A DNA stretch of 64,000 nucleotides, from assembly GCA_026018925.1 (NCBI GenBank), contig JAKSZU010000508.1, positions 30,158 through 94,157 of the forward strand. Reading direction: 5' to 3'. Within the stretch, counting starts at the first letter, position 1; the number at the start of each line of letters is the position of its first letter. Below the pieces are notes generated by a model. It was not told the origin of the DNA. It saw nothing but the letters and a program-made list of their open reading frames with translations, and made no database searches. The position numbers and the translations under genes were made by a program. Shown here one piece after another: positions 1 through 34,499 of the stretch. The stretch is from Tupaia tana. Its lineage: Eukaryota; Chordata; Mammalia; Scandentia; Tupaiidae.

Positions 1-87
1 CCAGACTCCACCTTCTAGACTATCCAGGACTGCCAGAAGGCAATAGGCTCTCCTGCAAGCCTCTGGCCGGCAAGGGACACTGAGGGA

Positions 88-103
88 GGGTCACCTCTGA
101 CCC
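88..103. promoter_or_regulatory. Perfect inverted repeat GGGTCA-CCTC-TGACCC (one per core)
   Basis: Six-base arms GGGTCA and TGACCC are separated by CCTC, with further G:C pairing outside after one mismatch. GGGTCA is a known variant of the nuclear-receptor half-site AGGTCA. On the minus strand the same stretch reads GGGTCA-G-AGGTGA, resembling a DR1 element with one deviation in the second half. As RNA it would form a short tetraloop hairpin. It recurs in nearly every core, so the window holds roughly 400 copies. Binding by any receptor is not shown; the spacing of 4 is not the oestrogen-receptor spacing of 3. Confidence 0.45.
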
Positions 104-118
104 CCACCTCACTTCCAG
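96..118 (+). promoter_or_regulatory. Splice-acceptor-like motif inside the core
   Basis: CTGAC, a match to the branch-site pattern yUnAy, is followed after 18 bases by a C/T-rich tract ending CTTCCAG. Every core carries it. In long units the 29 nt between this AG and the donor-like GTAGGT of the insert form a micro-exon-like segment (for example 377-405). This suggests, without proving it, that the unit derives from a genic exon/intron fragment. In several units CTTCCAG has become CTTCTAG (for example near 1813 and 2514). Confidence 0.3.
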
Positions 119-405
119 ACCCCCAGGCCCCAGACTCCACCTTCTAGACTATCCAGGACTGCCAGAAGGCAATAGGCTCTCCTGCATGACTCTGGCCAGC
201 AAGGGACACTGAGGGAGGGTCACCTCTGACCCCCACCTCACTTCCAGACCCCCAGGCCCCAGACTCCACCTTCTAGACTATCCAGGACTGCCAGAAGGCA
301 ATAGGCTCTCCTGCAAGCCTCTGGCCGGCAAGGGACACTGAGGGAGGGTCACCTCTGACCCCCACCTCACTTCCAGACCCCCAGGCCCCAGACTCCACCT
401 TCTAG

Positions 406-498
406 GTAGGTAGCCAGGATTTCCTTGAGGCGGTTTTTTGTTCTCTCTTGAAACCCCTGCATTCCGTTGTTAACACCTAGCTCTCCTTCTCCCCCCAG
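406..498 (+). repeat. Reference 93-bp insert with spliceosomal-intron anatomy
   Basis: The segment lies between CTAG (402-405) and ATTATCC (499 on). In units lacking it, CTAG joins directly to ACTATCC. It begins GTAGGTAG, which resembles a donor site (AG|GTAGGT), contains TTAAC about 22 bases before its end, and ends with a long pyrimidine tract and CCCCCCAG. AG stands on both sides of the boundary, so the same data fit a GT-AG intron, an insertion with a 2-bp target duplication, or a deletion between AG repeats. I see no terminal inverted repeats. GC is about 51%, lower than the core. That it acts as an intron is inference; the flanking core has no open frame. Confidence 0.85.
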
Positions 499-720
499 AT
501 TATCCAGGACTGCCAGAAGGCAATAGGCTCTCCTGCAAGCCTCTGGCCGGCAAGGGACACTGAGGGAGGGTCACCTCTGACCCCCACCTCACTTCCAGAC
601 CCCCAGGCCCCAGACTCCACCTTCTAGGTAGGTAGCCAGGATTTCCTTGAGGCAGTTTTTTGTTCTCTCTTGAAACCCCTGCATTCCGTTGTTAACACCT
701 AGCTCTCCTTCTCCCCCCAG
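499..720 (+). repeat. Reference 222-bp long unit (core plus insert)
   Basis: A 129-bp core at 499-627 is followed by a 93-bp insert at 628-720, and the next core starts at 721. This composite is the second unit type of the array. Long units tend to be adjacent to one another, giving runs with 221-223 bp period, and are otherwise scattered among short units. The insert removes the junction XbaI site, because TCTAGA becomes TCTAGG. It is usually followed by ATTATCC, where short units have ACTATCC. Confidence 0.93.
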
Positions 721-3700
721 ATTATCCAGGACAGCCAGAAGGCAATAGGCTCTCCTGCAAGCCTCTGGCCGGCAAGGGACACTGAGGGAGGGTCACCTCT
801 GACCCCCACCTCACTTCCAGACCCCCAGGCCCCAGACTCCACCTTCTAGACTATCCAGGACTGCCAGAAGGCAATAGGCTCTCCTGCAAGCCTCTGGCCG
901 GCAAGGGACACTGAAGGAGGGTCACCTCTGACCCCCACCTCACTTCCAGACCCCCAGGCCCCAGACTCCACCTTCTAGACTATCCAGGACTGCCAGAAGG
1001 CAATAGGCACTCCTGCAAGCCTCTGGCCGGCAAGGGACACTGAGGGAGGGTCACCTCTGACCCCCACCTCACTTCCAGACCACCAGGCCCCAGACTCCAC
1101 CTTCTAGACTATCCAGGACTGCCAGAAGTCAATAGGCTCTCCTGCAAGCCTCTGGCCGGCAAGGGACACTGAGGGAGGGTCACCTCTGACCCCCACCTCA
1201 CTTCCAGACCCCCAGGCCCCAGACTCCACCTTCTAGACTATCCAGGACTGCCAGAAGGCAATAGGCTCTCCTGCAAGCCTCTGGCCGGCAAGGGACACAG
1301 AGGGAGGGTCACCTCTGACCCCCACCTCACTTCCAGACCACCAGGCCCCAGACTCCACCTTCTAGGTAGGTAGCCAGGATTTCCTTGAGGCGGTTTTTTG
1401 TTCTCTCTTGAAACCCCTGCATTCCGTTGTTAACACCTAGCTCTCCTTCTCCCCCCCGATTATCCAGGACTGCCAGAAGGCAATAGGCTCTCCTGCAAGC
1501 CTCTGGCCGGCAAGGGACACTGAGGGAGCGTCACCTCTGACCCCCACCTCACTTCCAGACCCCCAGGCCCCAGACTCCACCTTCTAGACTATCCAGGACT
1601 GCCAGAAGGCAATAGGCTCTCCTGCAAGCCTCTGGCCGGCAAGGGACACTGAGGGAGAGTCACCTCTGACCCCCACCTCACTTCCAGACCCCCAGTCCCC
1701 AGACTCCACCTTCTAGACTATCCAGGACTGCCAGAAGGCAATAGGCCCTCCTGCAAGCCTCTGGCCGGCAAGGGACACTGAGGGAGGGTCACCTCTTACC
1801 CCCACCTCACTTCTAGACCCCCAGGCCCCAGACTCCACCTTCTAGACTATCCAGGACTGCCAGAAGGCAATAGGCTCTCCTGCAAGCCTCTGGCCGGCAA
1901 GGGACACTGAGGGAGGGTCACCTCTGACCCCCACCTCACTTCCAGACCCCCAGGCCCCAGACTCCACCTTCTAGGTAGGTAGCCAGGATTTCCTTGAGGC
2001 GGTTTTTTGTTCTCTCTTGAAACCCCTGCATTCCGTTGTAACACCTAGCTCTCCTTCTCCCCCCAGATTATCCAGGACTGCCAGAAGGCAATAGGCTCTC
2101 CTGCAATCCTCTGGCCGGCAAGGAACACTGAGGGAGGGTCACCTCTGACCCCCACCTCACTTCCAGACCCCCAGGCCCCAGACTCCACCTTCTAGGTAGG
2201 TAGCCAGGATTTCCTTGAGGCTGTTTTTTGTTCTCTCTTGAAACCCCTGCATTCCGTTGTTAACACCTAGCTCTCCTTCCCCCCCCAGATTATCCAGGAC
2301 TGCCAGAAGGCAATAGGCTCTCCTGCAAGCCTCTGGACAGCAAGGGACCCTGAGGGAGGGTCACCTCTGACCCCCACCTCACTTCCAGACCCCCAGGTCC
2401 CAGACTCCACCTTCTAGACTATCCAGGACTGCCAGAAGGCAATAGGCTCTCCTGCAAGCCTCTGGCCGGCAAGGGACACTGAGGGAGGGTCACCTATGAC
2501 CCCCACCTCACTTCTAGACCCCCAGGCCCCAGACTCCACCTTCTAGACTATCCAGGACTGCCAGAAGGCAATAGGCTCTCCTGCAAGACTCTGGCCGGCA
2601 AGGGACACTGAGGGAGGGTCACCTCTGACCCCCACCTCACTTCCAGACCCCCAGGCCCCAGACTCCACCTTCTAGACTATCCAGGACTGCCAGAAGGCAA
2701 TAGGCTCTCCTGCAAGCCTCTGGCCGGCAAGGGACACTGAGGGAGGGTCACCTCTGACCCCCACCTCTCTTCCAGACCCCCAGGCCCCAGACTCCACCTT
2801 CTAGACTATCCAGGACTGCCAGAAGGCAATAGGCTCTCCTGCAAGCCTCTGGCCAGCAAGGGACACTGAGGGAGGGTCACCTCTGACCCCCACCTCACTT
2901 CCAGACCCCCAGGCCCCAGACTCCACCTTCTAGACTATCCAGGACTGCCAGAAGGCAATAGGCTCTCCTGCAAGCCTCTGGCCGGCAAGGGACACTGAGG
3001 GAGGGTCACCTCTGACCCCCACCTCACTTCCAGACCCCCAGGCCCCAGACTCCACCTTCTAGACTATCCAGGACTGCCAGAAGGCAATAGGCTTTCCTGC
3101 AAACCTCTGGCCGGCAAGGGACACTGAGGGAGGGTCACCTCTGACAACCACCACACTTCCAGACCCCCAGGCCACAGACTCCACCTTCTAGACTATCCAG
3201 GACTGCCAGAAGGCAATAGGCTCTCCTGCAAGCCTCTGGCCGGCAAGGGACACTGAGGGAGGGTCACCTCTGACCCCCACCTCACTTCCAGACCCCCAGG
3301 CCCCAGACTCCACCTTCTAGACTATCCAGGACTGCCAGAAGGCAATAGGCTCTCCTGCAAGCCTCTGGCCGGCAAGGGACACTGAGGGAGTGTCACCTCT
3401 GACCCCCACCTCACTTCCAGACCCCCAGGCCCCAGACTCCACCTTCTAGACTATCCAGGACTGCCAGAAGGCAATAGGCTCTCCTGCAAGCCTCTGGCCG
3501 GCAAGGGACACTGAGGGAGTGTCACCTCTGACCCCCACCTCACTTCCAGACCCCCAGGCCCCAGACTCCACCTTCTAGACTATCCAGGACTGCCAGAAGG
3601 CAATAGGCTCTCCTGCAAGCCTCTGGCCGGCAAGGGACACTGAGGGAGGGTCACCTCTGACCCCAACATCACTTCCAGACCCCCAGGCACCAGACTCCAC

Positions 3701-4757
3701 CTTCTAAACTATCCAGGACTGCCAGAAGGCAATAGGATCTCCTGCAAGCCTCTGGCCGGCAAGGGACACTGAGGGAGGGTCACCTCTGACCCCCACCTCA
3801 CTTCCAGACCCCCAGGCCCCAGACTCCACCGTCTAGGTAGGTAGCCAGGATTTCCTGGAGGCGGTTTTTTGTTCTCTCTTGAAACCCCTGCATTCCGTTG
3901 TAACACCTAGCTCTCCTTCTCCCCCCAGATTATCCAGGACTGCCAGAAGGCAATAGGCTCTCCTGCAATCCTCTGGCCGGCAAGGAACACTGAGGGAGGG
4001 TCACCTCTGACCCCCACCTCACTTCCAGACCCCCAGGCACCAGACTCCACCTTCTAGGTAGGTAGCCAGGATTTCCTTGAGGCGGTTTTTTGTTCTCTCT
4101 TGAAACCCCTGCATTCCGTTGTTAACACCTAGCTCTCCTTCTCCCCCAGATTATCCAGGACTGCCAGAAGGCAATAGGCTCTCTTGCAAGCCTCTGGCCG
4201 GCAAGGGACCCTGAGGGAGGGTCACCTCTGACCCCCACCTCACTTCCAGACCCCCAGGCCCCAGACTCCACCTTCTAGACTATCCAGGACTGCCAGAAGG
4301 CAATAGGCTCTCCTGCAAGCCTCTGGCCGGCAAGGGACACTGAGGGAGGGTCACCTCTGACCCCCACCTCACTTCCAGACCCCCAGGCCCCAGACTCCAC
4401 CTTCTAGAATATCCAGGACTGCCAGAAGGCAATAGGCTCTCCTTCAAGCCTCTGGCCGGCAAGGGACACTGAGGGAGGGTCACCTCTGACCCCCACCTCA
4501 CTTCCAGACCCCCAGGCCCCAGACTCCACCTTCTAGACTATCCAGGACTGCCAGAAGGCAATAGGCTCTCCTGCAAGCCTCTGGCCGGCAAGGGACACTG
4601 AGGGAGGGTCACCTCTGACCCCCACCTCACTTCCAGACCCCCAGGCCCCAGACTCCACCTTCTAGGTAGGTAGCCAGGATTTCCTTGAGGCGGTTTTTTG
4701 TTCTCTCTTGAAACCCCTGCATTCCGTTGTTAACACCTAGCTCTCCTTCCCCCCCAG

Positions 4758-6691
4758 ATTATCCAGGACTGCCAGAAGGCAATAGGCTCTCCTGCAAGCC
4801 TCTGGCCAGCAAGGGACCCTGAGGGAGGGTCACCTCTGACCCCCACCTCACTTCCAGACCCCCAGGCCCCAGACTCCACCTTCTAGACTATCCAGGACTG
4901 CCAGAAGGCAATAGGCTCTCCTGCAAGCCTCTGGCCGGCAAGGGACACTGAGGGAGGGTCACCTCTGACCCCCACCTCACTTCCAGACCCCCAGGCCCCA
5001 GACTCCACCTTCTAGACTATCCAGGACTGCCAGAAGGCAATAGGCACTCCTGCAAGCGTCTGGCCAGCAAGGGACACTGAGGGAGTGTCACCTCTGACCC
5101 CCACCTCACTTCCAGACCCCCAGGCCCCAGACTCCACCTTCTAGACTATCCAGGACTGCCAGAAGGCAATAGGCTCTCCTGCAAGACTCTGGCCGGCAAG
5201 GGACACTGAGGGAGGGTCACCTCTGACCCCCACCTCACTTCCAGACCCCCAGGCCCCAGACTCCACCTTCTAGACTATCCAGGACTGCCAGAAGGCAATA
5301 GGCTCTCCTGCAAGCTCTAGCCGGCAAGGGACACTGAGGGAGGGTCACCTCTGACCCCCACCTCACTTCCAGACCGCCAGGCCCCAGACTCCACCTTTTA
5401 GATTATCCAGGACTGCCAGAAGGCAATAGGCTCTCCTGCAAGCCTCTGGCCAGCAAGGGACCCTGAGGGAGGGTCACCTCTGACCCCCACCTCACTTCCA
5501 GACCCCCAGGTCCCAGACTCCACCTTCTAGACTATCCAGGACTGCCAGAAGGCAATAGGCTCTCCTGCAAGCCTCTGGCCGGCAAGGGACACTGAGGGAG
5601 GGTCACCTCTGACCCCCACCTCACTTCCAGACCCCCAGGCCCCAGACTCCACCTTCTAGACTATCCAGGACTGCCAGAAGGCAATAGGCTCTCCTGCAAG
5701 CCTCTGGCCGGCAAGGGACACTGAGGGAGGGTCACCTCTGACCCCCACCTCACTTCCAGACCCCCAGGCCCCAGACTCCACCTTCTAGACTATCCAGGAC
5801 TGCCAGAAGGCAATAGGCTCTTCTGCAAGCCTCTGGCCGGCAAGGGACACTGAGGGAGGGTCACCTCTGACCCCCACCTCACTTCTAGACCCCCAGGCCC
5901 CAGACTCCAACTTCTAGACTATCCAGGACTGCGAGAAGGCAAAAGGCTCTCCTGCAAGCCTCTGGCCGGCAAGGGACACTGAGGGAGGGTCACCTCTGAC
6001 CCCCACCTCACTTCCAGACCCCCAGGCCCCAGACTCCACCTTCTAGACTATCCAGGACTGCCAGAAGGCAATAGGCTCTCCTGCAAGCCTCTGGCCGGCA
6101 AGGGACACTGAAGGAGGGTCACCTCTGACCCCCACCTCACTTCCAGACCCCCAGGCCCCAGACTCCACCTTCTAGACTATCCAGGACTGCCAGAAGGCAA
6201 TAGGCTCTCCTGCAAGCCTCTGGCCGGCAAGGGACACTGAGGGAGGGTCACCTCTGACCCCCACCTCACTTCCAGACCCCCAGGCCCCAGACTCCACCTT
6301 CTAGACTATCCAGGACTGCCAGAAGGCAATAGGCTCTCCTGCAAGCCTCTGGCCGGCAAGGGACACTGAGGGAGGGTCACCTCTGACCCCCACCTCACTT
6401 CCAGACCCCCAGGCCCCAGACTCCACCTTCTAGACTATCCAGGACTGCCAGAAGGCAATAGGCTCTCCTGCAAGCCTCTGGCCGGCAAGGGACACTGAGG
6501 GAGGGTCACCTCTGACCCCCACCTCACTTCCAGACCCCCAGGTCCCAGACTCCACCTTCTAGACTATCCAGGACTGCCAGAAGGCAATAGGCTCTCCTGC
6601 AAGCCTCTGGCCGGCAAGGGACACTGAGGGAGGGTCACCTCTGACCCCCACCTCACTTCCAGACCCCCAGGCCCCAGACTCCACCTTCTAG
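4758..6691 (+). repeat. Insert-free run of 15 core units
   Basis: 1934 bp of consecutive short units without an insert. It includes the marker unit near 5309 with one base deleted in GCAAGCTCTAGCC and with ACCGCCAGG downstream. The same marker pair recurs near 11246, 16370, 19137 and 26125. The unit near 5930 carries GCGAGAAGGCAAAAGG, which reappears near 12568 and 14394. Nothing other than the repeat is visible. Confidence 0.9.
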
Positions 6692-9600
6692 GTAGGTAGC
6701 CAGGATTTCCTTGAGGCGGTTTTTTGTTCTCTCTTGAAACCCCTGCATTCCGTTGTTAACACCTAGCTCTCCTTCTCCCCCCAGATTATCCAGGACTGCC
6801 AGAAGGCAATAGGCTCTCCTGCAAGCCTCTGGCCGGCAAGGGACACTGAGGGAGGGTCACCTCTGACCCCCACCTCACTTCCAGACCCCCAGGCCCCAGA
6901 CTCCACCTTCTAGGTAGGTAGCCAGGATTTCCTTGAGGCGGTTTTTTGTTCTCTCTTGAAACCCCTGCATTCCGTTGTTAACACCTAGCTCTCCTTCTCC
7001 CCCCAGATTATCCAGGACTGCCAGAAGGCAATAGGCTCTCCTGCAAGCCTCTGGCCGGCAAGGGACACTGAGGGAGGGTCACCTCTGACCCCCACCTCAC
7101 TTCCAGACCCCCAGGCCCCAGACTCCACCTTCTAGGTAGGTAGCCAGGATTTCCTTGAGGCAGTTTTTTGTTCTCTCTTGAAACCCCTGCATTCCGTTGT
7201 TAACACCTAGCTCTCCTTCTCCCCCCAGATTATCCAGGACAGCCAGAAGGCAATAGGCTCTCCTGCAAGCCTCTAGCCGGCAACGGACACTGAGGGAGGG
7301 TCACCTCTTTCCCCCACCTCACTTCCAGACCCCCAGGCCCCAGACTCCACCTTCTAGACTATCCAGGACTGCCAGAAGGCAATAGGCTCTCCTGCAAGCC
7401 TCTGGCCGGCAAGGGACACTGAGGGAAGGTCACCTCTGACCCCCACCTCACTTCCAGACCCCCAGGCCCCAGACTCCACCTTCTAGACTATCCAGGACTG
7501 CCAGAAGGCAATAGGCTCTTCTGCAAGCCTCTGGCCGGCAAGGGACACTGAGGGAGGGTCACCTCTGACCCCCACCTCTCTTCTAGACCCCCAGGCCCCA
7601 TACTCCACCTTCTAGACTATCCAGGACTGCCAGAAGGCAATAGGCTCTCCTGCAAGCCTCTGGCCGGCAAGGGACACTGAGGGAGGGTCACCTCTGACCC
7701 CCACCTCACTTCCAGACCCCCAGGCCCCAGACTCCACCTTCTAGACTATCCAGGACTGCCAGAAGGCAATAGGCTCTCCTGCAAGCCTCTGGCCGGCAAG
7801 GGACACTGAAGGAGGGTCACCTCTGACCCCCACCTCACTTCCAGACCCCCAGGCCCCAGACTCCACCTTCTAGACTATCCAGGACTGCCAGAAGGCAATA
7901 GGCACTCCTGCAAGCCTCTGGCCGGCAAGGGACACTGAGGGAGGGTCACCTCTGACCCCCACCTCACTTCCAGACCACCAGGCCCCAGACTCCACCTTCT
8001 AGACTATCCAGGACTGCCAGAAGGCAATAGGCTCTCCTGCAAGCCTCTGGCCGGCAAGGGACACTGAGGGAGGGTCACCTCTGACCCCCACCTCACTTCC
8101 AGACCCCCAGGCCCCAGACTCCACCTTCTAGACTATCCAGGACTGCCAGAAGGCAATAGGCTCTCCTGCAAGCCTCTGGCCGGCAAGGGACACAGAGGGA
8201 GGGTCACCTCTGACCCCCACCTCACTTCCAGACCCCCAGGCCCCAGACTCCACCTTCTAGGTAGGTAGCCAGGATTTCCTTGAGGCGGTTTTTTGTTCTC
8301 TCTTGAAACCCCTGCATTCCGTTGTTAACACCTAGCTCTCCTTCTCCCCCCCGATTATCCAGGACTGCCAGAAGGCAATAGGCTCTCCTGCAAGCCTCTG
8401 GCCGGCAAGGGACACTGAGGGAGCGTCACCTCTGACCCCCACCTCACTTCCAGACCCCCAGGCCCCAGACTCCACCTTCTAGACTATCCAGGACTGCCAG
8501 AAGGCAATAGGCTCTCCTGCAAGCCTCTGGCCGGCAAGGGACACTGAGGGAGAGTCACCTCTGACCCCCACCTCACTTCCAGACCCCCAGTCCCCAGACT
8601 CCACCTTCTAGACTATCCAGGACTGCCAGAAGGCAATAGGCTCTCCTGCAAGCCTCTGGCCGGCAAGGGACACTGAGGGAGGGTCACCTCTGACCCCCAC
8701 CTCTCTTCCAGACCCCCAGGCCCCAGACTCCACCTTCTAGACTATCCAGGACTGCCAGAAGGCAATAGGCTCTCCTGCAAGCCTCTGGCCAGCAAGGGAC
8801 ACTGAGGGAGGGTCACCTCTGACCCCCACCTCACTTCCAGACCCCCAGGCCCCAGACTCCACCTTCTAGACTATCCAGGACTACCAGAAGGCAATAGGCT
8901 CTCCTGCAAGCATCTGGCCGGCAAGGGACACTGAGGGAGGGTCACCTCTGACCCCCACCTCACTTCCAGACCCCCAGGCCACAGACTCCACCTTCTAGAC
9001 TATCCAGGACTGCCAGAAGGCAATAGGCTTTCCTGCAAACCTCTGGCCGGCAAGGGACACTGAGGGAGGGTCACCTCTGACAACCACCACACTTCCAGAC
9101 CCCCAGGCCACAGACTCCACCTTCTAGACTATCCAGGACTGCCAGAAGGCAATAGGCTCTCCTGCAAGCCTCTGGCCGGCAAGGGACACTGAGGGAGGGT
9201 CACCTCTGACCCCCACCTCACTTCCAGACCCCCAGGCCCCAGACTCCACCTTCTAGACTATTCAGGACTGCCAGAAGGCAATAGGCTCTCCTGCAAGCCT
9301 CTGGCCGGCAAGGGACACTGAGGGAGTGTCACCTCTGACCCCCACCTCACTTCCAGACCCCCAGGCCCCAGACTCCACCTTCTAGACTATCCAGGACTGC
9401 CAGAAGGCAATAGGCTCTCCTGCAAGCCTCTGGCCGGCAAGGGACACTGAGGGAGTGTCACCTCTGACCCCCACCTCACTTCCAGACCCCCAGGCCCCAG
9501 ACTCCACCTTCTAGACTATCCAGGACTGCCAGAAGGCAATAGGCTCTCCTGCAAGCCTCTGGCCGGCAAGGGACACTGAGGGAGGGTCACCTCTGACCCC

Positions 9601-11350
9601 AACATCACTTCCAGACCCCCAGGCACCATACTCTACCTTCTAAACTATCCAGGACTGCCAGAAGGCAATAGGATCTCCTGCAAGCCTCTGGCCGGCAAGG
9701 GACACTGACGGAGGGTCACCTCTGACCCCCACCTCACTTCCAGACCCCCAGGCCCCAGACTCCACCGTCTAGGTAGGTAGCCAGGATTTCCTTGAGGCGG
9801 TTTTTTGTTCTCTCTTGAAACCCCTGCATTCCATTGTAACACCTAGCTCTCCTTCTCCCCCCAGATTATCCAGGACAGCCAGAAGGCAATAGGCTCTCCT
9901 GCAATCCTCTGGCCGGCAAGGAACACTGAGGGAGGGTCACCTCTGACCCCCACCTCACTTCCAGACCCCCAGGCACCAGACTCCACCTTCTAGGTAGGTA
10001 GCCAGGATTTCCTTGAGGCGGTTTTTTGTTCTCTCTTGAAACCCCTGCATTCCGTTGTTAACACCTAGCTCTCCTTCTCCCCCAGATTATCCAGGACTGC
10101 CAGAAGGCAATAGGCTCTCTTGCAAGCCTCTGGCCGGCAAGGGACCCTGAGGGAGGGTCACCTCTGACCCCCACCTCACTTCCAGACCCCCAGGCCCCAG
10201 ACTCCACCTTCTAGACTATCCAGGACTGCCAGAAGGCAATAGGCTCTCCTGCAAGCCTCTGGCCGGCAAGGGACACTGAGGGAGGGTCACCTCTGACCCC
10301 CACCTCACTTCCAGACCCCCAGGCCCCAGACTCCACCTTCTAGAATATCCAGGACTGCCAGAAGGCAATAGGCTCTCCTGCAAGCCTCTGGCCGGCAAGG
10401 GACACTGAGGGAGGGTCACCTCTGACCCCCACCTCACTTCCAGACCCCCAGGCCCCAGACTCCACCTTCTAGACTATCCAGGACTGCCAGAAGGCAATAG
10501 GCTCTCCTGCAAGCCTCTGGCCGGCAAGGGACACTGAGGGAGGGTCACCTCTGACCCCCACCTCACTTCCAGACACCCAGGCCCCAGACTCCACCTTCTA
10601 GGTAGGTAGCCAGGATTTCCTTGAGGCGGTATTTTGTTCTCTCTTGAAACCCCTGCATTCCGTTGTTAACACCTAGCTCTCCTTCCCCCCCAGATTATCC
10701 AGGACTGCCAGAAGGCAATAGGCTCTCCTGCAAGCCTCTGGCCAGCAAGGGACCCTGAGGGAGGGTCACCTCTGACCCCCACCTCACTTCCAGACCCCCA
10801 GGCCCCAGACTCCACCTTCTAGACTATCCAGGACTGCCAGAAGGCAATAGGCTCTCCTGCAAGCCTCTGGCCGGCAAGGGACACTGAGGGAGGGTCACCT
10901 CTGACCCCCACCTCACTTCCAGACCCCCAGGCCCCAGACTCCACCTTCTAGACTATCCAGGACTGCCAGAAGGCAATAGGCACTCCTGCAAGCCTCTGGC
11001 CAGCAAGGGACACTGAGGGAGTGTCACCTCTGACCCCCACCTCACTTCCAGACCCCCAGGCCCCAGACTCCACCTTCTAGACTATCCAGGACTGCCAGAA
11101 GGCAATAGGCTCTCCTGCAAGACTCTGGCCGGCAAGGGACACTGAGGGAGGGTCACCTCTGACCCCCACCTCACTTCCAGACCCCCAGGCCCCAGACTCC
11201 ACCTTCTAGACTATCCAGGACTGCCAGAAGGCAATAGGCTCTCCTGCAAGCTCTAGCCAGCAAGGGACACTGAGGGAGGGTCACCTCTGACCCCCACCTC
11301 ACTTCCAGACCGCCAGGCCCCAGACTCCACCTTTTAGATTATCCAGGACT
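6692..11350 (+). repeat. Left-domain block A, second copy with whole-unit deletions and gains
   Basis: Seven inserts: 6692-6784, 6914-7006, 7136-7228, 8261-8353 (ends CCCG), 9773-9864 (92 bp), 9994-10085 and 10602-10693. Three consecutive long units start at 6692. Relative to the first copy it has gained 387 bp (three cores) between 7136 and 8261. It lacks 959 bp (six cores and two inserts) corresponding to about 1.7-2.7 kb. From about 8.7 kb it tracks the first copy at a constant offset of 5936 up to about 11346. The same triplet-plus-1125 spacing is found again at 19744-21313. Confidence 0.85.
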
Positions 11351-12075
11351 GCCAGAAGGCAATAGGCTCTCCTGCAAGCCTCTGGCCGGCAAGGGACACT
11401 GAGGGAGGGTCACCTCTGACCCCCACCTCACTTCCAGACCCCCAGGCCCCAGACTCCACCTTCTAGACTATCCAGGACTGCCAGAAGGCAATAGGCTCTC
11501 CTGCAAGCCTCTGGCCGGCAAGGGACACTGAGGGAGGGTCACCTCTGACCCCCACCTCACTTCCAGACCCCCAGGCCCCAGACTCCACCTTCTAGACTAT
11601 CCAGGACTGCCAGAAGGCAATAGGCTCTCCTGCAAGACTCTGGCCAGCAAGGGACACTGAGGGAGGGTCACCTCTGACCCCCACCTCACTTCCAGACCCC
11701 CAGGCCCCAGACTCCACCTTCTAGACTATCCAGGACTGCCAGAAGGCAATAGGCTCTCCTGCAAGCCTCTGGCCGGCAAGGGACACTGAGGGAGGGTCAC
11801 CTCTGACCCCCACCTCACTTCCAGACCCCCAGGCCCCAGACTCCACCTTCTAGGTAGGTAGCCAGGATTTCCTTGAGGCGGTTTTTTGTTCTCTCTTGAA
11901 ACCCCTGCATTCCGTTGTTAACACCTAGCTCTCCTTCTCCCCCCAGATTATCCAGGACTGCCAGAAGGCAATAGGCTCTCCTGCAAGCCTCTGGCCGGCA
12001 AGGGACACTGAGGGAGGGTCACCTCTGACCCCCACCTCACTTCCAGACACCCAGGCCCCAGACTCCACCTTCTAG
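11351..12075 (+). repeat. Core run and one long unit between blocks
   Basis: Short units, then the insert 11854-11946 and one more core, whose variant CAGACACCCAGG (about 12045) is also seen near 10573. Only the satellite is present. Confidence 0.85.
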
Positions 12076-13901
12076 GTAGGTAGCCAGGATTTCCTTGAGG
12101 CGGTTTTTTGTTCTCTCTTGAAACCCCTGCATTCCGTTGTTAACACCTAGCTCTCCTTCTCCCCCCAGATTATCCAGGACAGCCAGAAGGCAATAGGCTC
12201 TCCTGCAAGCCTCTAGCCGGCAACGGACACTGAGGGAGGGTCACCTCTTTCCGGCACCTCACTTCCAGACCCCAAGGCCCCAGACTCCACCTTCTAGACT
12301 ATCCAGGACTGCCAGAAGGCAATAGGCTCTCCTGCAAGCCTCTGGCCGGCAAGGGACACTGAGGGAGGGTCACCTCTGACCCCCACCTCACTTCCAGACC
12401 CCCAGGCCCCAGACTCCACCTTCTAGACTATCCAGGACTGCCAGAAGGCAATAGGCTCTTCTGCAAGCCTCTGGCCGGCAAGGGACACTGAGGGAGGGTC
12501 ACCTCTGACCCCCACCTCACTTCTAGACCCCCAGGCCCCAGACTCCAACTTCTAGACTATCCAGGACTGCGAGAAGGCAAAAGGCTCTCCTGCAAGCCTC
12601 TGGCCGGCAAGGGACACTGAGGGAGGGTCACCTCTGACCCCCACCTCACTTCCAGACCCCCAGGCCCCAGACTCCACCTTCTAGACTATCCAGGACTGCC
12701 AGAAGGCAATAGGCTCTCCTGCAAGCCTCTGGCCGGCAAGGGACACTGAAGGAGGGTCACCTCTGACCCCCACCTCACTTCCAGACCCCCAGGCCCCAGA
12801 CTCCACCTTCTAGACTATCCAGGACTGCCAGAAGGCAATAGGCACTCCTGCAAGCCTCTGGCCGGCAAGGGACACTGAGGGAGGGTCACCTCTGACCCCC
12901 ACCTCACTTCCAGACCACCAGGCCCCAGACTCCACCTTCTAGACTATCCAGGACTGCCAGAAGGCAATAGGCTCTCCTGCAAGCCTCTGGCCGGCAAGGG
13001 ACACTGAGGGAGGGTCACCTCTGACCCCCACCTCACTTCCAGACCCCCAGGCCCCAGACTCCACCTTCTAGACTATAGAGGACTGCCAGAAGGCAATAGG
13101 CTCTCCTGCAAGCCTCTGGCCGGCAAGGGACACAGAGGGAGGGTCACCTCTGACCCCCACCTCACTTCCAGACCCCCAGGCCCCAGACTCCACCTTCTAG
13201 GTAGGTAGCCAGGATTTCCTTGAGGCGGTTTTTTGTTCTCTCTTGAAACCCCTGCATTCCGTTGTTAACACCTAGCTCTCCTTCTCCCCCCCCGATTATC
13301 CAGGACTGCCAGAAGGCAAAAGGCTCTCCTGCAAGCCTCTGGCCGGCAACGGACACTGAGGGAGCGTCACCTCTGACCCCCACCTCACTTCCAGACCCCC
13401 AGGCCCCAGACTCCACCTTCTAGACTATCCAGGACTGCCAGAAGGCAATAGGCTCTCCTGCAAGCCTCTGGCCGGCAAGGGACATTGAGGGAGGGTCACC
13501 TCTGACCCCCACCTCACTTCCAGACCCCCAGTCCCCAGACTCCACCTTCTAGACTATCCAGAACTGCCAGAAGGCAATAGGCTCTCCTGCAAGCCTCTGG
13601 TCGGCAAGGGACACTGAGGGAGGGTCACCTCTGACCCCCACCTCACTTCCAGACCCCCAGGCCCCAGACTCCACCTTCTAGGTAGGTAGCCAGGATTTCC
13701 TTGAGGCGGTTTTTTGTTCTCTCTTGAAACCCCTGCATTCCGTTGTAACACCTAGCTCTCCTTCTCCCCCCAGATTATCCAGGACTGCCAGAAGGCAATA
13801 GGCTCTCCTGCAAGCCTCTGGCCGGCAAGGGACACTGAGGGAGGGTCACCTCTGACCCCACCTCACTTCCAGACCCCCAGGCCCCAGACTCCACCTTCTA
13901 G
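12076..13901 (+). repeat. 1826-bp tandem duplication, first copy
   Basis: Contains inserts 12076-12168, 13201-13294 (94 bp, ends CCCG) and 13682-13773 (92 bp). Private variants are repeated exactly 1826 bp downstream: CTTTCCGGCACC (about 12247), CCCCAAGGCC (about 12272), the GACTATAGAGGAC junction (about 13073) and GGCAAAAGG (about 13316). The shared rare variants show a recent duplication of a 14-unit block rather than general homogenisation. Confidence 0.88.
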
Positions 13902-15727
13902 GTAGGTAGCCAGGATTTCCTTGAGGCGGTTTTTTGTTCTCTCTTGAAACCCCTGCATTCCGTTGTTAACACCTAGCTCTCCTTCTCCCCCCAGATTATC
14001 CAGGACAGCCAGAAGGCAATAGGCTCTCCTGCAAGCCTCTAGCCGGCAACGGACACTGAGGGAGGGTCACCTCTTTCCGGCACCTCACTTCCAGACCCCA
14101 AGGCCCCAGACTCCACCTTCTAGACTATCCAGGACTGCCAGAAGGCAATAGGCTCTCCTGCAAGCCTCTGGCCGGCAAGGGACACTGAGGGAGGGTCACC
14201 TCTGACCCCCACCTCACTTCCAGACCCCCAGGCCCCAGACTCCACCTTCTAGACTATCCAGGACTGCCAGAAGGCAATAGGCTCTTCTGCAAGCCTCTGG
14301 CCGGCAAGGGACACTGAGGGAGGGTCACCTCTGACCCCCACCTCACTTCTAGACCCCCAGGCCCCAGACTCCAACTTCTAGACTATCCAGGACTGCGAGA
14401 AGGCAAAAGGCTCTCCTGCAAGCCTCTGGCCGGCAAGGGACACTGAGGGAGGGTCACCTCTGACCCCCACCTCACTTCCAGACCCCCAGGCCCCAGACTC
14501 CACCTTCTAGACTATCCAGGACTGCCAGAAGGCAATAGGCTCTCCTGCAAGCCTCTGGCCGGCAAGGGACACTGAAGGAGGGTCACCTCTGACCCCCACC
14601 TCACTTCCAGACCCCCAGGCCCCAGACTCCACCTTCTAGACTATCCAGGACTGCCAGAAGGCAATAGGCACTCCTGCAAGCCTCTGGCCGGCAAGGGACA
14701 CTGAGGGAGGGTCACCTCTGACCCCCACCTCACTTCCAGACCACCAGGCCCCAGACTCCACCTTCTAGACTATCCAGGACTGCCAGAAGGCAATAGGCTC
14801 TCCTGCAAGCCTCTGGCCGGCAAGGGACACTGAGGGAGGGTCACCTCTGACCCCCACCTCACTTCCAGACCCCCAGGCCCCAGACTCCACCTTCTAGACT
14901 ATAGAGGACTGCCAGAAGGCAATAGGCTCTCCTGCAAGCCTCTGGCCGGCAAGGGACACAGAGGGAGGGTCACCTCTGACCCCCACCTCACTTCCAGACC
15001 CCCAGGCCCCAGACTCCACCTTCTAGGTAGGTAGCCAGGATTTCCTTGAGGCGGTTTTTTGTTCTCTCTTGAAACCCCTGCATTCCGTTGTTAACACCTA
15101 GCTCTCCTTCTCCCCCCCCGATTATCCAGGACTGCCAGAAGGCAAAAGGCTCTCCTGCAAGCCTCTGGCCGGCAACGGACACTGAGGGAGCGTCACCTCT
15201 GACCCCCACCTCACTTCCAGACCCCCAGGCCCCAGACTCCACCTTCTAGACTATCCAGGACTGCCAGAAGGCAATAGGCTCTCCTGCAAGCCTCTGGCCG
15301 GCAAGGGACATTGAGGGAGGGTCACCTCTGACCCCCACCTCACTTCCAGACCCCCAGTCCCCAGACTCCACCTTCTAGACTATCCAGAACTGCCAGAAGG
15401 CAATAGGCTCTCCTGCAAGCCTCTGGTCGGCAAGGGACACTGAGGGAGGGTCACCTCTGACCCCCACCTCACTTCCAGACCCCCAGGCCCCAGACTCCAC
15501 CTTCTAGGTAGGTAGCCAGGATTTCCTTGAGGCGGTTTTTTGTTCTCTCTTGAAACCCCTGCATTCCGTTGTAACACCTAGCTCTCCTTCTCCCCCCAGA
15601 TTATCCAGGACTGCCAGAAGGCAATAGGCTCTCCTGCAATCCTCTGGCCGGCAAGGAACACTGAGGGAGGGTCACCTCTGACCCCCACCTCACTTCCAGA
15701 CCCCCAGGCCCCAGACTCCACCTTCTA
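13902..15727 (+). repeat. 1826-bp tandem duplication, second copy
   Basis: Inserts 13902-13994, 15027-15120 (94 bp, ends CCCG) and 15508-15599 (92 bp) sit at exactly +1826 from their partners. Similarity by shared variants ends just after about 15600, where the second copy has the GCAATCC/GGAACACTG core and the first does not. The next insert, 15729-15819, is a 91-bp variant. Confidence 0.88.
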
Positions 15728-15728
15728 G

Positions 15729-15819
15729 GTAGGTGCCAGGATTTCCTTGAGGCGGTTTTTTGTTCTCTCTTGAAACCCCTGCATTCCGTTGTTAACACCT
15801 AGCTCTCCTTCCCCCCCAG
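15729..15819 (+). repeat. 91-bp insert variant
   Basis: One A is missing from the donor-side GTAGGTAG (it reads GTAGGTGCC) and one base from the pyrimidine tract. The terminal CCAG is kept. It is one of the two shortest inserts in the window, the other being 63074-63164. Confidence 0.85.
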
Positions 15820-18800
15820 ATTATCCAGGACTGCCAGAAGGCAATAGGCTCTCCTGCAAGCCTCTGGCCAGCAAGGGACCCTGAGGGAGGGTCACCTCTG
15901 ACCCCCACCTCACTTCCAGACCCCCAGGTCCCAGACTCCACCTTCTAGACTATCCAGGACTGCCAGAAGGCAATAGGCTCTCCTGCAAGCCTCTGGCCGG
16001 CAAGGGACACTGAGGGAGGGTCACCTCTGACCCCCACCTCACTTCCAGACCCCCAGGTCCCAGACTCCACCTTCTAGACTATCCAGGACTGCCAGAAGGC
16101 AATAGGCTCTCCTGCAAGCCTCTGGCCGGCAAGGGACACTGAGGGAGTGTCACCTCTGACCCCCACCTCACTTCCAGACCCCCAGGCCCCAGACTCCACC
16201 TTCTAGACTATCCAGGACTGCCAGAAGGCAATAGGCTCTCCTGCAAGCCTCTGGCCGGCAAGGGACACTGAGGGAGGGTCACCTCTGACCCCCACCTCAC
16301 TTCCAGACCCCCAGGCCCCAGACTCCACCTTCTAGACTATCCAGGACTGCCAGAAGGCAATAGGCTCTCGTGCAAGCTCTAGCCGGCAAGGGACACTGAG
16401 GGAGGGTCACCTCTGACCCCCACCTCACTTCCAGACCGCCAGGCCCCAGACTCCACCTTCTAGACTATCCAGGACTGCCAGAAGGCAATAGGCTCTCCTG
16501 CAAGCCTCTGGCCGGCAAGGGACACTGAGGGAGGGTCACCTCTGACCCCCACCTCACTTCCAGACCCCCAGGCCCCAGACTCCACCTTCCAGACTATCCA
16601 GGACTGCCAGAAGGCAATAGGCTCTCCTGCAAGCCTCTGGCTTGCAAGGGACACTGAGGGAGGGTCACCTCTGACCCTCACCTCACATCCAGACCCCCAG
16701 GCCCCAGACTCCACCTTCTAGACTATCCAGGACTGCCAGAAGGCAATAGGCTCTCCTGCAAGCCTCTGGCCGGCAAGGGACACTGAGGGAGGGTCACCTC
16801 TGACCCCCACCTCACTTCCAGTCCCCCAGGCCCCAGACTCCACTTTCTAGACTATCCAGGACTGCCAGAAGGCAATAGGCTCTCCTGCAAGCCTCTGGCC
16901 GGCAAGGGACACTGAGGGAGGGTCACCTCTGACCCCTACCTCACTTCCAGACCCTCAGGCCCCAGACTCCACCTTCTAGACTATCCAGGACTGCCAGAAG
17001 GCAATAGGCTCTCCTGCAAGCCTCTGGCCGGCAAGGGACACTGAGGGAGGGTCACCTCTGACTCCCACCTCTCTTCCAGACCCCCAGGTCCCAGACTCCA
17101 CCTTCTAGACTATCCAGGACTGCCAGAAGGCAATAGGCTCTCCTGCAAGCCTCTGGCCAGCAAGGGACACTGAGGGAGGGTCACCTCTGACCCCCACCTC
17201 ACTTCCAGTCCCCCAGGCCCCAGACTCCACCTTCTAGACTATCCAGGACTGCCAGAAGGCAATAGGCTCTCCTGCAAGCCTCTGGCCGGCAAGGGACACT
17301 GAGGGAGGGTCACCTCTGACCCCGACCTCACTTCCAGACACTCAGGCCCCAGACTCCACCTTCTAGACTATCCAGGACTGCCAGAAGGCAATAGGCTCTC
17401 CTGCAAGCCTCTGGCCGGCAAGGGACACTGAGGGAGGGTCACCTCTGACCCCCACCTCACTTCCAGACCCCCAGGCCCCAGACTCCACCTTCTAGGTAGG
17501 TAGCCAGGATTTCCTTGAGGCGGTTTTTTGTTCTCTCTTGAAACCCCTGCATTCCGTTGTTAACACCTAGCTCTCCTTCTCCCCCCAGATTATCCAGGAC
17601 AGCCAGAAGGCAATAGGCTCTCCTGCAAGCCTCTAGCCGGCAACGGACACTGGGGGAGGGTCACCTCTTTCCCCCACCTCACTTCTAGACCCCCAGGCCC
17701 CAGACTCCACCTTCTAGACTACCCAGGACTGCCAGAAGGCAATAGGCTCTCCTGCAAGCCTCTGGCCGGCAAGGGACACTGAGGGAAGGTCACCTCTGAC
17801 CCCCACCTCACTTCCAGACCCCCAGGCCCCAGACTCCACCTTCTAGACTATCCAGGACTGCCAGAAGGCAATAGGCTCTTCTGCAAGCCTCTGGCCGGCA
17901 AGGGACACTGAGGGAGGGTCACCTCTGACCCCCACCTCTCTTCTAGACCCCCAGGCCCCATACTCCACCTTCTAGACTATCCAGGACTGCCAGAAGGCAA
18001 TAGGCTCTCCTGCAAGCCTCTGGCCGGCAAGGGACACTGAGGGAGGGTCACCTCTGACCCCCACCTCACTTCCAGACCCCCAGGCCCCAGACTCCACCTT
18101 CTAGACTATCCAGGACTGCCAGAAGGCAATAGGCTCTCCTGCAAGCCTCTGGCCGGCAAGGGACACTGAAGGAGGGTCACCTCTGACCCCCACCTCACTT
18201 CCAGACCCCCAGGACCCAGACTCCACCTTCTAGACTATCCAGGACTGCCAGAAGGCAATAGGCACTCCTGCAAGCCTCTGGCCGGCAAGGGACACTGAGG
18301 GAGGGTCACCTCTGACCCCCACCTCACTTCCAGACCCCAGGCCCCAGACTCCACCTTCTAGACTATCCAGGACAGCCAGAAGGCAATAGGCTCTCCTGCA
18401 AGCCTCTGGCCGGCAAGGGACACTGAGGGAGGGTCACCTCTGACCCCCACCTCACTTCCAGACCCCCAGGCCCCAGACTCCACCTTCTAGACTATCCAGG
18501 ACTGCCAGAAGGCAATAGGCTCTCCTGCAAGCCTCTGGCCGGCAAGGGACACAGAGGGAGGGTCACCTCTGACCCCCACCTCACTTCCAGACCCCCAGGC
18601 CCCAGACTCCACCTTCTAGGTAGGTAGCCAGGATTTCCTTGAGGCGGTTTTTTTGTTCTCTCTTGAAACCCCTGCATTCCGTTGTTAACACCTAGCTCTC
18701 CTTCCCCCCCAGATTATCCAGGACTGCCAGAAGGCAATAGGCTCTCCTGCAAGCCTCTGGCCAGCAAGGGACCCTGAGGGAGGGTCACCTCTGACCCCCA

Positions 18801-19743
18801 CCTCACTTCCAGAACCCCAGGTCCCAGACTCCACCTTCTAGACTATCCAGGACTGCCAGAAGGCAATAGGCTCTCCTGCAAGCCTCTGGCCGGCAAGGGA
18901 CACTGAGGGAGGGTCACCTCTGACCCCCACCTCACTTCCAGACCCCCAGGCCCCAGACTCCACCTTCTAGACTATCCAGGACTGCCAGAAGGCAATAGGC
19001 TCTCCTGCAAGACTCTGGCCGGCAAGGGACACTGAGGGAGGGTCACCTCTGACCCCCACCTCACTTCCAGACCCCCAGGCCCCAGACTCCACCTTCTAGA
19101 CTATCCAGGAATGCCATAAGGCAATAGGCTCTCCTGCAAGCTCTAGCCGGCAAGGGACACTGAGGGAGGGTCACCTCTGACCCCCACCTCACTTCCAGAC
19201 CGCCAGGCCCCAGACTCCACCTTCTAGACTATCCAGGACTGCCAGAAGGCAATAGGCTCTCCTGCAAGCCTCTGGCCGGCAAGGGACACTGAGGGAGGGT
19301 CACCTCTGACCCCCACCTCACTTCCAGACCCCCAGGCCCCAGACTCCACCTTCTAGACTATCCAGGACTGCCAGAAGGCAATAGGCTCTCCTGCAAGCCT
19401 CTGGCCGGCAAGGGACACTGAGGGAGGGTCACCTCTGACCCCCACCTCACTTCCAGACCCCCAGGCCCCAGACTCCACCTTCTAGACTATCCAGGACTGC
19501 CAGAAGGCAATAGGCTCTCCTGCAAGCCTCTGGCCGGCAAGGGACACTGAGGGAGGGTCACCTCTGACCCCCACCTCACTTCCAGACCCCCAGGCCCCAG
19601 ACTCCACCTTCTAGACTATCCAGGACTGCCAGAAGGCAATAGGCTCTCCTGCAAGCCTCTGGCCGGCAAGGGACACTGAGGTAGGGTCACCTCTGACCCC
19701 CACCTCAATTCCAGACCCCCAGGCCCCAGACTCCACCTTCTAG
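15820..19743 (+). repeat. Core-dominated stretch with two inserts
   Basis: Only inserts 17496-17588 and 18620-18712 occur here. The stretch from 17496 is another version of the about 1125-bp segment marked by ACAGCCAGAAGG, CTCTAGCCGGCAACGG and CTCTTTCC that follows inserts at 7136, 12076, 13902 and 20188. Here it is 1124 bp because of a one-base loss in CAGACCCCAGG (about 18335). At about 16589 the junction CTAG has become CCAG, which removes the sole stop in one frame on each strand and joins two units without a stop. The sequence is otherwise the repeat. Confidence 0.85.
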
Positions 19744-22700
19744 GTAGGTAGCCAGGATTTCCTTGAGGCTGTTTTTTGTTCTCTCTTGAAACCCCTGCAT
19801 TCCGTTGTTAACACCTAGCTCTCCTTCTCCCCCCAGATTATCCAGGACTGCCAGAAGGCAATAGGCTCTCCTGCAAGCCTCTGGCCGGCAAGGGACACTG
19901 AGGGAGGGTCACCTCTGACCCCCACCTCACTTCCAGACCCCCAGGCCCCAGACTCCACCTTCTAGGTAGGTAGCCAGGATTTCCTTGAGGCGGTTTTTTG
20001 TTCTCTCTTGAAACCCCTGCATTCCGTTGTTAACACCTAGCTCTCCTTCTCCCCCCAGATTATCCAGGACTGCCAGAAGGCAATAGGCTCTCCTGCAAGC
20101 CTCTGGCCGGCAAGGGACACTGAGGGAGGGTCACCTCTGACCCCCACCTCACTTCCAGACCCCCAGGCCCCAGACTCCACCTTCTAGGTAGGTAGCCAGG
20201 ATTTCCTTGAGGCGGTTTTTTGTTCTCTCTTGAAACCCCTGCATTCCGTTGTTAACACCTAGCTCTCCTTCTCCCCCCAGATTATCCAGGACTGCCAGAA
20301 GGCAATAGGCTCTCCTGCAAGCCTCTAGCCGGCAACGGACACTGAGGGAGGGTCACCTCTTTCCCCCACCTCACTTCCAGACCCCCAGGCCCCAGACTCC
20401 ACCTTCTAGACTATCCAGGACTGCCAGAAGGCAATAGGCTCTCCTGCAAGCCTCTGGCCGGCAAGGGACACTGAGGGAAGGTCACCTCTGACCCCCACCT
20501 CACTTCCAGACCCCCAGGCCCCAGACTCCACCTTCTAGACTATCCAGGACTGCCAGAAGGCAATAGGCTCTTCTGCAAGCCTCTGGCCGGCAAGGGACAC
20601 TGAGGGAGGGTCACCTCTGACCCCCACCTCTCTTCTAGACCCCCAGGCCCCATACTCCACCTTCTAGACTATCCAGGACTGCCAGAAGGCAATAGGCTCT
20701 CCTGCAAGCCTCTGGCCGGCAAGGGACACTGAGGGAGGGTCACCTCTGACCCCCACCTCACTTCCAGACCCCCAGGCCCCAGATTCCACCTTCTAGACTA
20801 TCCAGGACTGCCAGAAGGCAATAGGCTCTCCTGCAAGCCTCTGGCCGGCAAGGGACACTGAAGGAGGGTCACCTCTGACCCCCACCTCACTTCCAGACCC
20901 CCAGGCCCCAGACTCCACCTTCTAGACTATCCAGGACTGCCAGAAGGCAATAGGCACTCCTGCAAGCCTCTGGCCGGCAAGGGACACTGAGGGAGGGTCA
21001 CCTCTGACCCCCACCTCACTTCCAGACCACCAGGCCCCAGACTCCACCTTCTAGACTATCCAGGACTGCCAGAAGGCAATAGGCTCTCCTGCAAGCCTCT
21101 GGCCGGCAAGGGACACTGAGGGAGGGTCACCTCTGACCCCCACCTCACTTCCAGACCCCCAGGCCCCAGACTCCACCTTCTAGACTATCCAGGACTGCCA
21201 GAAGGCAATAGGCTCTCCTGCAAGCCTCTGGCCGGCAAGGGACACAGAGGGAGGGTCACCTCTGACCCCCACCTCACTTCCAGACCCCCAGGCCCCAGAC
21301 TCCACCTTCTAGGTAGGTAGCCAGGATTTCCTTGAGGCGGTTTTTTGTTCTCTCTTGAAACCCCTGCATTCCGTTGTTAACACCTAGCTCTCCTTCTCCC
21401 CCCCGATTATCCAGGACTGCCAGAAGGCAATAGGCTCTCCTGCAAGCCTCTGGCCGGCAAGGGACACTGAGGGAGCGTCACCTCTGACCCCCACCTCACT
21501 TCCAGACCCCCAGGCCCCAGACTCCACCTTCTAGACTATCCAGGACTGCCAGAAGGCAATAGGCTCTCCTGCAAGCCTCTGGCCGGCAAGGGACACTGAG
21601 GGAGAGTCACCTCTGACCCCCACCTCACTTCCAGACCCCCAGTCCCCAGACTCCACCTTCTAGACTATCCAGGACTGCCAGAAGGCAATAGGCTCTCCTG
21701 CAAGCCTCTGGCCGGCAAGGGACACTGAGGGAGGGTCACCTCTTACCCCCACCTCACTTCCAGACCCCCAGGCCCCAGACTCCACCTTCTACACTATCCA
21801 GGACTGCCAGAAGGCAATAGGCTCTCCTGCAAGCCTCTGGCCGGCAAGGGACACTGAGGGAGGGTCACCTCTGACCCCCACCTCACTTCCAGACCCCCAG
21901 GCCCCAGACTCCACCTTCTAGGTAGGTAGCCAGGATTTCCTTGAGGCGGTTTTTTGTTCTCTCTTGAAACCCCTCCATTCCGTTGTAACACCTAGCTCTC
22001 CTTCTCCCCCCAGATTATCCAGGACTGCCAGAAGGCAATAGGCTCTCCTGCAATCCTCTGGCCGGCAAGGAACACTGAGGGAGGGTCACCTCTGACCCCC
22101 ACCTCACTTCCAGACCCCCAGGCCCCAGACTCCACCTTCTAGGTAGGTAGCCGGGATTTCCTTGAGGCTGTTTTTTGTTCTCTCTTGAAACCCCTGCATT
22201 CCGTTGTTAACACCTAGCTCTCCTTCCCCCCCCAGATTATCCAGGACTGCCAGAAGGCAATAGGCTCTCCTGCAAGCCTCTGGACAGCAAGGGACCCTGA
22301 GGGAGGGTCACCTCTGACCCCCACCTCACTTCCAGACCCCCAGGTCCCAGACTCCACCTTCTAGACTATCCAGGACTGCCAGAAGGCAATAGGCTCTCCT
22401 GCAAGCCTCTGGCCGGCAAGGGACACTGAGGGAGGGTCACCTATGACCCCCACCTCACTTCTAGACCCCCAGGCCCCAGACTCCACCTTCTAGACTATCC
22501 AGGACTGCCAGAAGGCAATAGGCTCTCCTGCAAGACTCTGGCCGGCAAGGGACACTGAGGGAGGGTCACCTCTGACCCCCACCTCACTTCCAGACCCCCA
22601 GGCCCCAGACTCCACCTTCTAGACTATCCAGGACTGCCAGAAGGCAATAGGCTCTCCTGCAAGCCTCTGGCCGGCAAGGGACACTGAGGGAGGGTCACCT

Positions 22701-30205: not shown

Positions 30206-30721
30206 ATTATCCAGGACTGCCAGAAGGCAATAGGCTCTCCTGCAAGCCTCTGGCCGGCAAGGGACACTGAGGGAGCGTCACCTCTGACCCCCACCTCACT
30301 TCCAGACCCCCAGGCCCCAGACTCCACCTTCTAGACTATCCAGGACTGCCAGAAGGCAATAGGCTCTCCTGCAAGCCTCTGGCCGGCAAGGGACACTGAG
30401 GGAGAGTCACCTCTGACCCCCACCTCACTTCCAGACCCCCAGTCCCCAGACTCCACCTTCTAGACTATCCAGGACTGCCAGAAGGCAATAGGCTCTCCTG
30501 CAAGCCTCTGGCCGGCAAGGGACACTGAGGGAGGGTCACCTCTTACCCCCACCTCACTTCCAGACCCCCAGGCCCCAGACTCCACCTTCTAGACTATCCA
30601 GGACTGCCAGAAGGCAATAGGCTCTCCTGCAAGCCTCTGGCCGGCAAGGGACACTGAGGGAGGGTCACCTCTGACCCCCACCTCACTTCCAGACCCCCAG
30701 GCCCCAGACTCCACCTTCTAG

Positions 30722-34375: not shown

Positions 34376-34499
34376 CTATCCAGGACTGCCAGAAGGCAAT
34401 AGGCTCTCCTGCAAGCCTCTGGCCGGCAAGGGATACTGAGGGAGTGTCACCTCTGACCCCCACCTCACTTCCAGACCCCCAGGCCCCAGACTCCACCTT

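What the first reader, a model, noticed from the sequence alone, without database searches (positions are those of the whole stretch)
406..498. Insert has the anatomy of a complete minimal intron, present or absent precisely among satellite units
The + strand shows AG|GTAGGT at the left boundary, TTAAC about 22 nt from the end, a pyrimidine-rich tract and CCCCCCAG at the right boundary, while insert-free units join seamlessly at that point. This is what intron presence/absence would look like inside a satellite. Candidate origins are a genic exon-intron fragment amplified in both unspliced and spliced-like forms, an intron-generating insertion (introner-like, here with AG duplication), or chance. 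The lack of any open frame argues against present coding use.
Basis: partly seen in the sequence, partly recalled or inferred. Interest (0 to 1): 0.75.

Follow-up and report, generated by a model that had tools for sequence, protein, structure and literature searches.

The report
Satellite length variant resembling an intron
This stretch is one long tandem satellite whose 129-base unit comes with or without one extra 93-base block, and although the block's ends look like those of an intron, it behaves as an old inherited length variant, with no sign here that splicing maintains it.

Summary
Position 406-498 is exactly GTAGGT...CCCCCCAG, 93 nt, inside a 129-bp satellite that fills the 64-kb window; 94 of 428 units carry it, at the same point, and 334 lack it. 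The intron likeness exceeds chance: the best donor and best acceptor of the 222-nt unit's + strand lie exactly at the two ends.

It does not behave like a maintained or mobile intron. It has one site in the array. The acceptor AG is gone in 13 of 94 copies and TTAAC altered in 20 of 94. In recent duplicates its state agrees in 285 of 287 inner junction pairs. No consensus frame is open and no coding bias is seen. The block's start imperfectly repeats the sequence just after it (15/21; suggestive only), which points to slippage.

Best reading: one ancient indel with AG/AG ends, spread by unequal exchange (0.7). A fossil intron stays possible (0.2). Species, flanks, relatives and RNA could not be reached; whether the event was a loss or a gain is unresolved.

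The parts
406..498 (+). the 93-nt optional block (GTAGGT...CCCCCCAG); it can equally be phased as 404-496 because AG stands at both ends
403..411 (+). donor-like boundary TAG|GTAGGT, best donor score of the unit on the + strand
   Evidence: recalled matrix
470..474 (+). TTAAC, branch-site-like; intact in 74 of 94 copies
481..501 (+). pyrimidine tract and acceptor-like boundary CCCCCCAG|ATT; AG lost in 13 of 94 copies
411..431 (+). left copy of an imperfect direct repeat (near the start of the block)
   Evidence: D1, 15 of 21 identical
501..521 (+). right copy of the imperfect direct repeat (just after the block)
   Evidence: D1
499..627 (+). 129-bp core that follows this block; a second block starts at 628
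1..64000 (.). the satellite array; all 428 distances between successive unit anchors are 128-130 or 220-224, so no flanking DNA is in the window

Best explanation
The block is an old, single-origin 93-bp indel in a satellite monomer, not a working intron. Shown: two unit lengths, 129 and 222, differ by one block at one place; the ends share AG; the block's state is copied along with neighbouring units when parts of the array duplicate. Suggested, weakly: the start of the block is an imperfect repeat of the bases right after it. Inferred: the two forms arose once, most likely when a 222-bp unit lost 93 bp by mispairing between these imperfect repeats, joining at the shared AG; the opposite direction (one insertion) is not excluded. 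Both forms then spread together by unequal exchange and local duplication, while exchange between them kept the rest of the unit common to both. The splice-like ends are read as a coincidence of AG microhomology with a CT-rich sequence, or as a trace of an ancestor from before the satellite, with no present use.
For: One position in all 94 cases. State agrees in 285 of 287 inner junction pairs of 21 overlapping duplicate segment pairs; in 18 plain runs of 10 or more units, 0 of 257 inner junctions differ. Insert-bearing junctions cluster: 45 adjacent pairs against 20.4 expected, 0 of 5000 shuffles as high. Insert diversity 0.023 is close to core diversity 0.027, so the dimorphism looks about as old as the array's present diversity. 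Downstream only the second base after the AG follows the state nearly completely (84 of 94 against 7 of 333); no site upstream does. Longest direct repeat of the 223-nt stretch stands at the block's start and just after its end, 15 of 21. Acceptor lost in 13 of 94. No consensus frame open, no synonymous excess.
Against: Splice-like ends are rarer than this reading would like (5.5e-5 conditional on AG). The repeat is weak evidence: similarity of both ends in register is reached in 0.67% of shuffles, but only the 5' end carries it (0.87%; the 3' end alone 22%), and register and length were chosen after seeing the match. Without the restriction it is not significant (188, 405 and 621 of 1000 shuffles under three scorings), nor are whole-length alignments (159 to 498 of 1000 under four scorings), and zero offset ranks only 16 to 46 of 129 rotations. 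A crossover inside the 21-mer would have removed 90 bp and left a hybrid; none was found. At the last junction of matched runs the state differs in 8 of 18. No outgroup, and diversity around the junction points both ways, so direction is unknown.
Confidence: 0.7

Rival explanations
1. Fossil intron: the satellite was seeded from a transcribed region; the long unit keeps a 93-nt U2-type intron and the short unit comes from a spliced, reverse-transcribed copy that entered the array, or from conversion with such a copy.
For: Best donor and best acceptor of the unit lie exactly at the two ends; conditional chance about 5e-5; TTAAC at -26; the block is T-richer (0.344 against 0.155) and poorer in GC (0.505 against 0.62) than the core; donor GT kept in 94 of 94.
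Against: Of 8 translated stretches of the consensus, 7 found no Pfam family at E up to 1 and one a match at 0.31; 2 stretches found nothing in the PDB. These libraries would miss a noncoding or lineage-specific gene. No consensus frame is open. An AG lies between TTAAC and the acceptor (CACCTAG). Acceptor and TTAAC are altered in 13 and 20 of 94. No clear recent gain or loss in duplicates.
Confidence: 0.2
2. Intron gained by tandem duplication: a piece carrying AG|GT was duplicated in tandem, so the block's start repeats the downstream exon's start, and the copies diverged.
For: The start of the block resembles the sequence just after it, as that model would give (model as described in the introduction of PMC4974935; the application is mine).
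Against: Only about the first 28 nt of the block resemble; the whole block is not significantly like the core. The downstream copy reads AGAT or AGAC, in one case AGAG, not AGGT. No evidence of transcription.
Confidence: 0.06
3. Introner-like mobile intron inserted into the satellite.
For: Splice-like ends and a precise empty site.
Against: One site in 428 junctions; only AG shared at the ends, no terminal inverted repeats found; a 21-mer of it has no exact match in viral contigs; state stays put within duplicates. The host's other DNA could not be searched.
Confidence: 0.02

Closest known systems
Satellite DNA with monomer length variants (general knowledge, recalled)
   Same: Tandem units over the whole window, two lengths that differ by one block, variants cluster and are copied in blocks.
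   Different: The variable block ends in strong splice-like sequences; exact words of the satellite were not found in viral or GTDB contigs, plasmid and phage matches were chance level, and six sequence words occur in no held paper.
Spliceosomal (U2-type) intron presence/absence
   Same: GT...AG ends, branch-like TTAAC, pyrimidine tract, seamless empty form.
   Different: No open frame, no transcript evidence, acceptor altered in 13 of 94, present in satellite units rather than in a known gene.
[quoted passage not shown] abstract and introduction read)
   Same: Start of the block resembles what follows its end.
   Different: Only a 21-nt stretch at 71% here, not a recognisable duplicated segment.
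Introners (PMC9860276; two passages and the opening of the abstract in a listing seen)
   Same: Precise splice-like ends at an empty site.
   Different: Introners insert into many genes; here a single site in a satellite, no 3-9 bp flanking repeat, no terminal inverted repeats (both occur in only part of the introner families).

Membership tests
Satellite DNA | long head-to-tail array of near-identical units | tested here: met
   428 units, mean pairwise core difference 0.027
Satellite DNA | variants spread by duplication and exchange | tested here: met
   duplicate blocks, 285 of 287 inner states kept, clustering 45 against 20.4
Spliceosomal intron | GT and AG ends with good splice scores | tested here: met
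   both ends intact in 81 of 94 copies; matrices recalled
Spliceosomal intron | removed from a transcript | not testable with these tools
   no RNA data held
Spliceosomal intron | ends kept by selection | tested here: not met
   acceptor AG lost in 13 of 94, TTAAC altered in 20 of 94, though GT is intact in 94 of 94
Spliceosomal intron | flanked by coding exon sequence (only for a protein-coding gene) | tested here: not met
   stops in all six consensus frames; synonymous changes in the three + frames 42, 49, 39 against 44.6, 48.3, 48.0 expected
Introner | copies at many separate sites | tested here: inconclusive
   one site in this window; rest of the genome unreachable
Introner | 3-9 bp target repeat and/or terminal inverted repeats (49 of 130 and 72 of 177 families, PMC9860276; so not required) | tested here: not met
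   AG only at the ends; the one inverted repeat found lies in the core
Tandem-duplication intron gain | intron is a copy of adjacent sequence | tested here: inconclusive
   21 nt at 71% in register, whole block not significant

The most novel reading that the evidence does not exclude
A satellite seeded by both the unspliced and the spliced form of one transcribed region, so that intron-bearing and intron-less monomers have been amplified and homogenised side by side; long units might still be spliced when transcribed.
Probability: 0.15. Interest if true: 0.75.

Novelty: new member of a known kind. Interest (0 to 1): 0.3.

Why it matters
As an ordinary length variant it is one more satellite with two monomer forms, useful as a marker of exchange: nearly all core variation is shared between the forms to within a few bases of the indel. 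If the block were a real intron, it would be evidence that satellite arrays can be seeded through RNA, and would give hundreds of natural intron-plus and intron-minus copies in one array.

Tried and rejected
Coding or gene origin: six-frame reading of the consensus, Pfam on 8 translated stretches, PDB on 2, codon-position counts gave nothing. RNA family: no Rfam match at gathering scores in the window; one family weakly matched, far below its cut-off. RNA fold of the block no better than shuffles on either strand. Block as a complete diverged monomer: global alignment not significant. Internal duplication within the core: not significant. Named relatives: core 20-mer in viral and GTDB contigs and block 21-mer in viral contigs, exact matches only, all zero; plasmid and phage matches are chance level (E-values 3 to 9 in the 20 of 45 and 20 of 30 records listed). 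Literature: no paper with all three of 'satellite DNA', '129 bp' and '222 bp', none with any of six sequence words, and I saw no described case of a satellite with intron-plus and intron-minus monomers in the listings (20 of 23 listed; 10 of 24 listed); only titles and abstract openings were seen there, so this is no proof that none is in print.

Mended after a check: the first column of the unit alignment is not a core site but the last base before the junction (T or C), so it was dropped from the diversity and linkage figures given here (core 0.027, not 0.029); the insert figure is for 92 of its 93 bases. One search was run with that column still in (one of 158 variants). The last junction of each segment was left out of the 287; one search counts such ends apart.

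Full report
What is there. The window is nothing but a tandem satellite: 428 complete units, 334 of about 129 bp and 94 of about 222 bp. The long ones carry one 93-nt block (91 to 95 with small length changes), always at the same point. Because AG stands before the block and at its end, the same length can be cut at 404, 405 or 406. The insert-free junction is CTTCTAG|ACTATCC; 293 of 334 are identical over 16 bases, the other 41 differ by base changes.

Is the intron likeness more than chance? Yes, with limits. I used donor and acceptor weight matrices recalled from memory. On the + strand of the 222-nt consensus unit, the left boundary is the best donor (8.72 bits; next 3.10) and the right boundary the best acceptor (10.53; next 8.51). 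In 300 shuffles (66,600 positions) no donor and acceptor 93 apart reached both scores. A fairer null grants AG at both ends, as a microhomology indel would have; then donors reach the score at 60 of 27,000 AG sites and acceptors at 667 of 27,000, product 5.5e-5. As a rank, each is the best among 18 AG sites, about 1 in 324, or roughly twice that if both strands are allowed. The core's other strand holds donors of 7.47 and 6.69, and the core's + strand acceptors of 7.37, 7.02 and 6.40, so moderately good sites are common in this CT-rich unit. TTAAC sits at -26, but a YTNAY motif occurs in that range in 42% of shuffled blocks, and an AG (CACCTAG) lies between it and the acceptor.

Does it behave like an intron? 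GT is intact in 94 of 94, CAG in 81 of 94, TTAAC in 74 of 94. The 13 failures of the acceptor all read CCG for CAG, with C tracts of varying length, so the loss was tolerated and amplified. All six frames of the short and long consensus hold stops. Among 158 variants of the core, synonymous changes in the three + frames are 42, 49 and 39 against 44.6, 48.3 and 48.0 expected, so there is no coding trace. Of eight translated stretches one met a Pfam family at E 0.31 and seven none; two found nothing in the PDB at E up to 10.

How does the state change? I compared segments of at least 6 units that match each other. In the 21 segment pairs with at least 10 shared rare variants and at most half as many mismatches, 285 of 287 inner junction pairs have the same state. 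The two exceptions are one junction, the first of its segment, compared with two others, where the next unit differs by 5 bases. The pairs overlap and are not independent; the unit comparison includes the site linked to the insert, which favours agreement slightly; and the last junction of each segment was left out. Counting those ends in 18 plain runs of 10 or more units: 0 of 257 inner junctions differ and 8 of 18 last ones do. At a last junction the following units no longer match, so these look like block ends rather than precise gains or losses, and a difference there is about what random pairing of the two forms would give (94 and 334 of 428, about a third). In looser segments more states differ, in some with near-identical neighbours (for example distances 2 and 1, units 45/79), but those share too few rare variants to be called recent duplicates, and 92 units equal the consensus. 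Long units cluster: 45 adjacent pairs against 20.4 expected, none of 5000 shuffles as high. So the state is mostly copied with its neighbourhood, and no clear recent precise gain or loss is seen.

How old, and how mixed? Mean pairwise difference is 0.023 in the block and 0.027 in the core. Downstream of the junction one site, C to T at the second base after the AG, follows the state (84 of 94 against 7 of 333); other linked core variants occur in at most 18 of 94; upstream none is near-fixed. I infer that the two forms exchange core sequence to within a few bases of the indel. Diversity beside the junction does not settle direction: after an insert it is higher than after a seamless junction (0.037 against 0.021), before an insert lower in the last 30 bases (0.011 against 0.029).

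What made it? The longest direct repeat in the long unit is TAGCCAGGATTTCCTTGAGGC at 411-431 and TATCCAGGACTGCCAGAAGGC at 501-521, 15 of 21: the start of the block resembles what follows the block. With the comparison restricted to the two ends in register, 0.67% of shuffles do as well, carried by the 5' end alone (0.87%; 3' end 22%); for the ungapped 21-mer, 0 of 2000. The register and length were set after seeing the match. Unrestricted tests are not significant (188, 405 and 621 of 1000), and neither are whole-length alignments (159 to 498 of 1000), so this is suggestive only. It fits slippage between imperfect repeats with a join at the shared AG, that is, loss of 93 bp from a 222-bp unit. 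No 90-bp hybrid was found, and without an outgroup a single insertion remains possible.

Relatives. None found: exact core 20-mer in the viral and GTDB contigs, exact block 21-mer in the viral contigs; plasmid and phage matches are chance. The host genome search did not answer in five tries. The species is unknown to me. None of six sequence words occurs in the held papers.

Verdict. Observation confirmed, interpretation partly supported. I put 0.7 on an ordinary single-origin indel spread by satellite dynamics and 0.2 on a fossil intron, with smaller shares for a duplication-born intron and an introner. Papers seen: PMC4974935 abstract and introduction, PMC4202315 abstract and outline, PMC9860276 two passages and the opening of its abstract; all others as search listings only.

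Noticed in passing
40608-45938 and 45939 onward: A run of 39 units matches itself at an offset of 37 units (about 5.3 kb) with 4 mismatches in all, a recent duplication within the array.
   Followed up: partly
34501-36862 and 36863 onward: A run of 15 units matches at an offset of 14 units (about 2.36 kb) with 1 mismatch, insert states identical.
   Followed up: partly
42349, 44306, 47680, 49637, 53360, 54413, 57786: A sub-variant of the block (GTAGCTAGTATTTCC), 7 copies, stands third in a run of three long units in 7 of 7 cases.
   Followed up: partly
1451-1458 and 12 further places: 13 of 94 blocks end CCCCCCCG instead of CCCCCCAG, apparently one amplified lineage.
   Followed up: partly
336-404, 558-626 and 780-848, - strand: Very weak Rfam likeness to MIMT1_1 (17.4 bits, gathering 45, E 0.76), probably chance.
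   Followed up: no
whole window: Consensus lengths 129, 93 and 222 are all multiples of three, yet no consensus frame is open; the only ORF of 100 aa or more is one of 104 aa at 26605-26919 on the - strand.
   Followed up: partly
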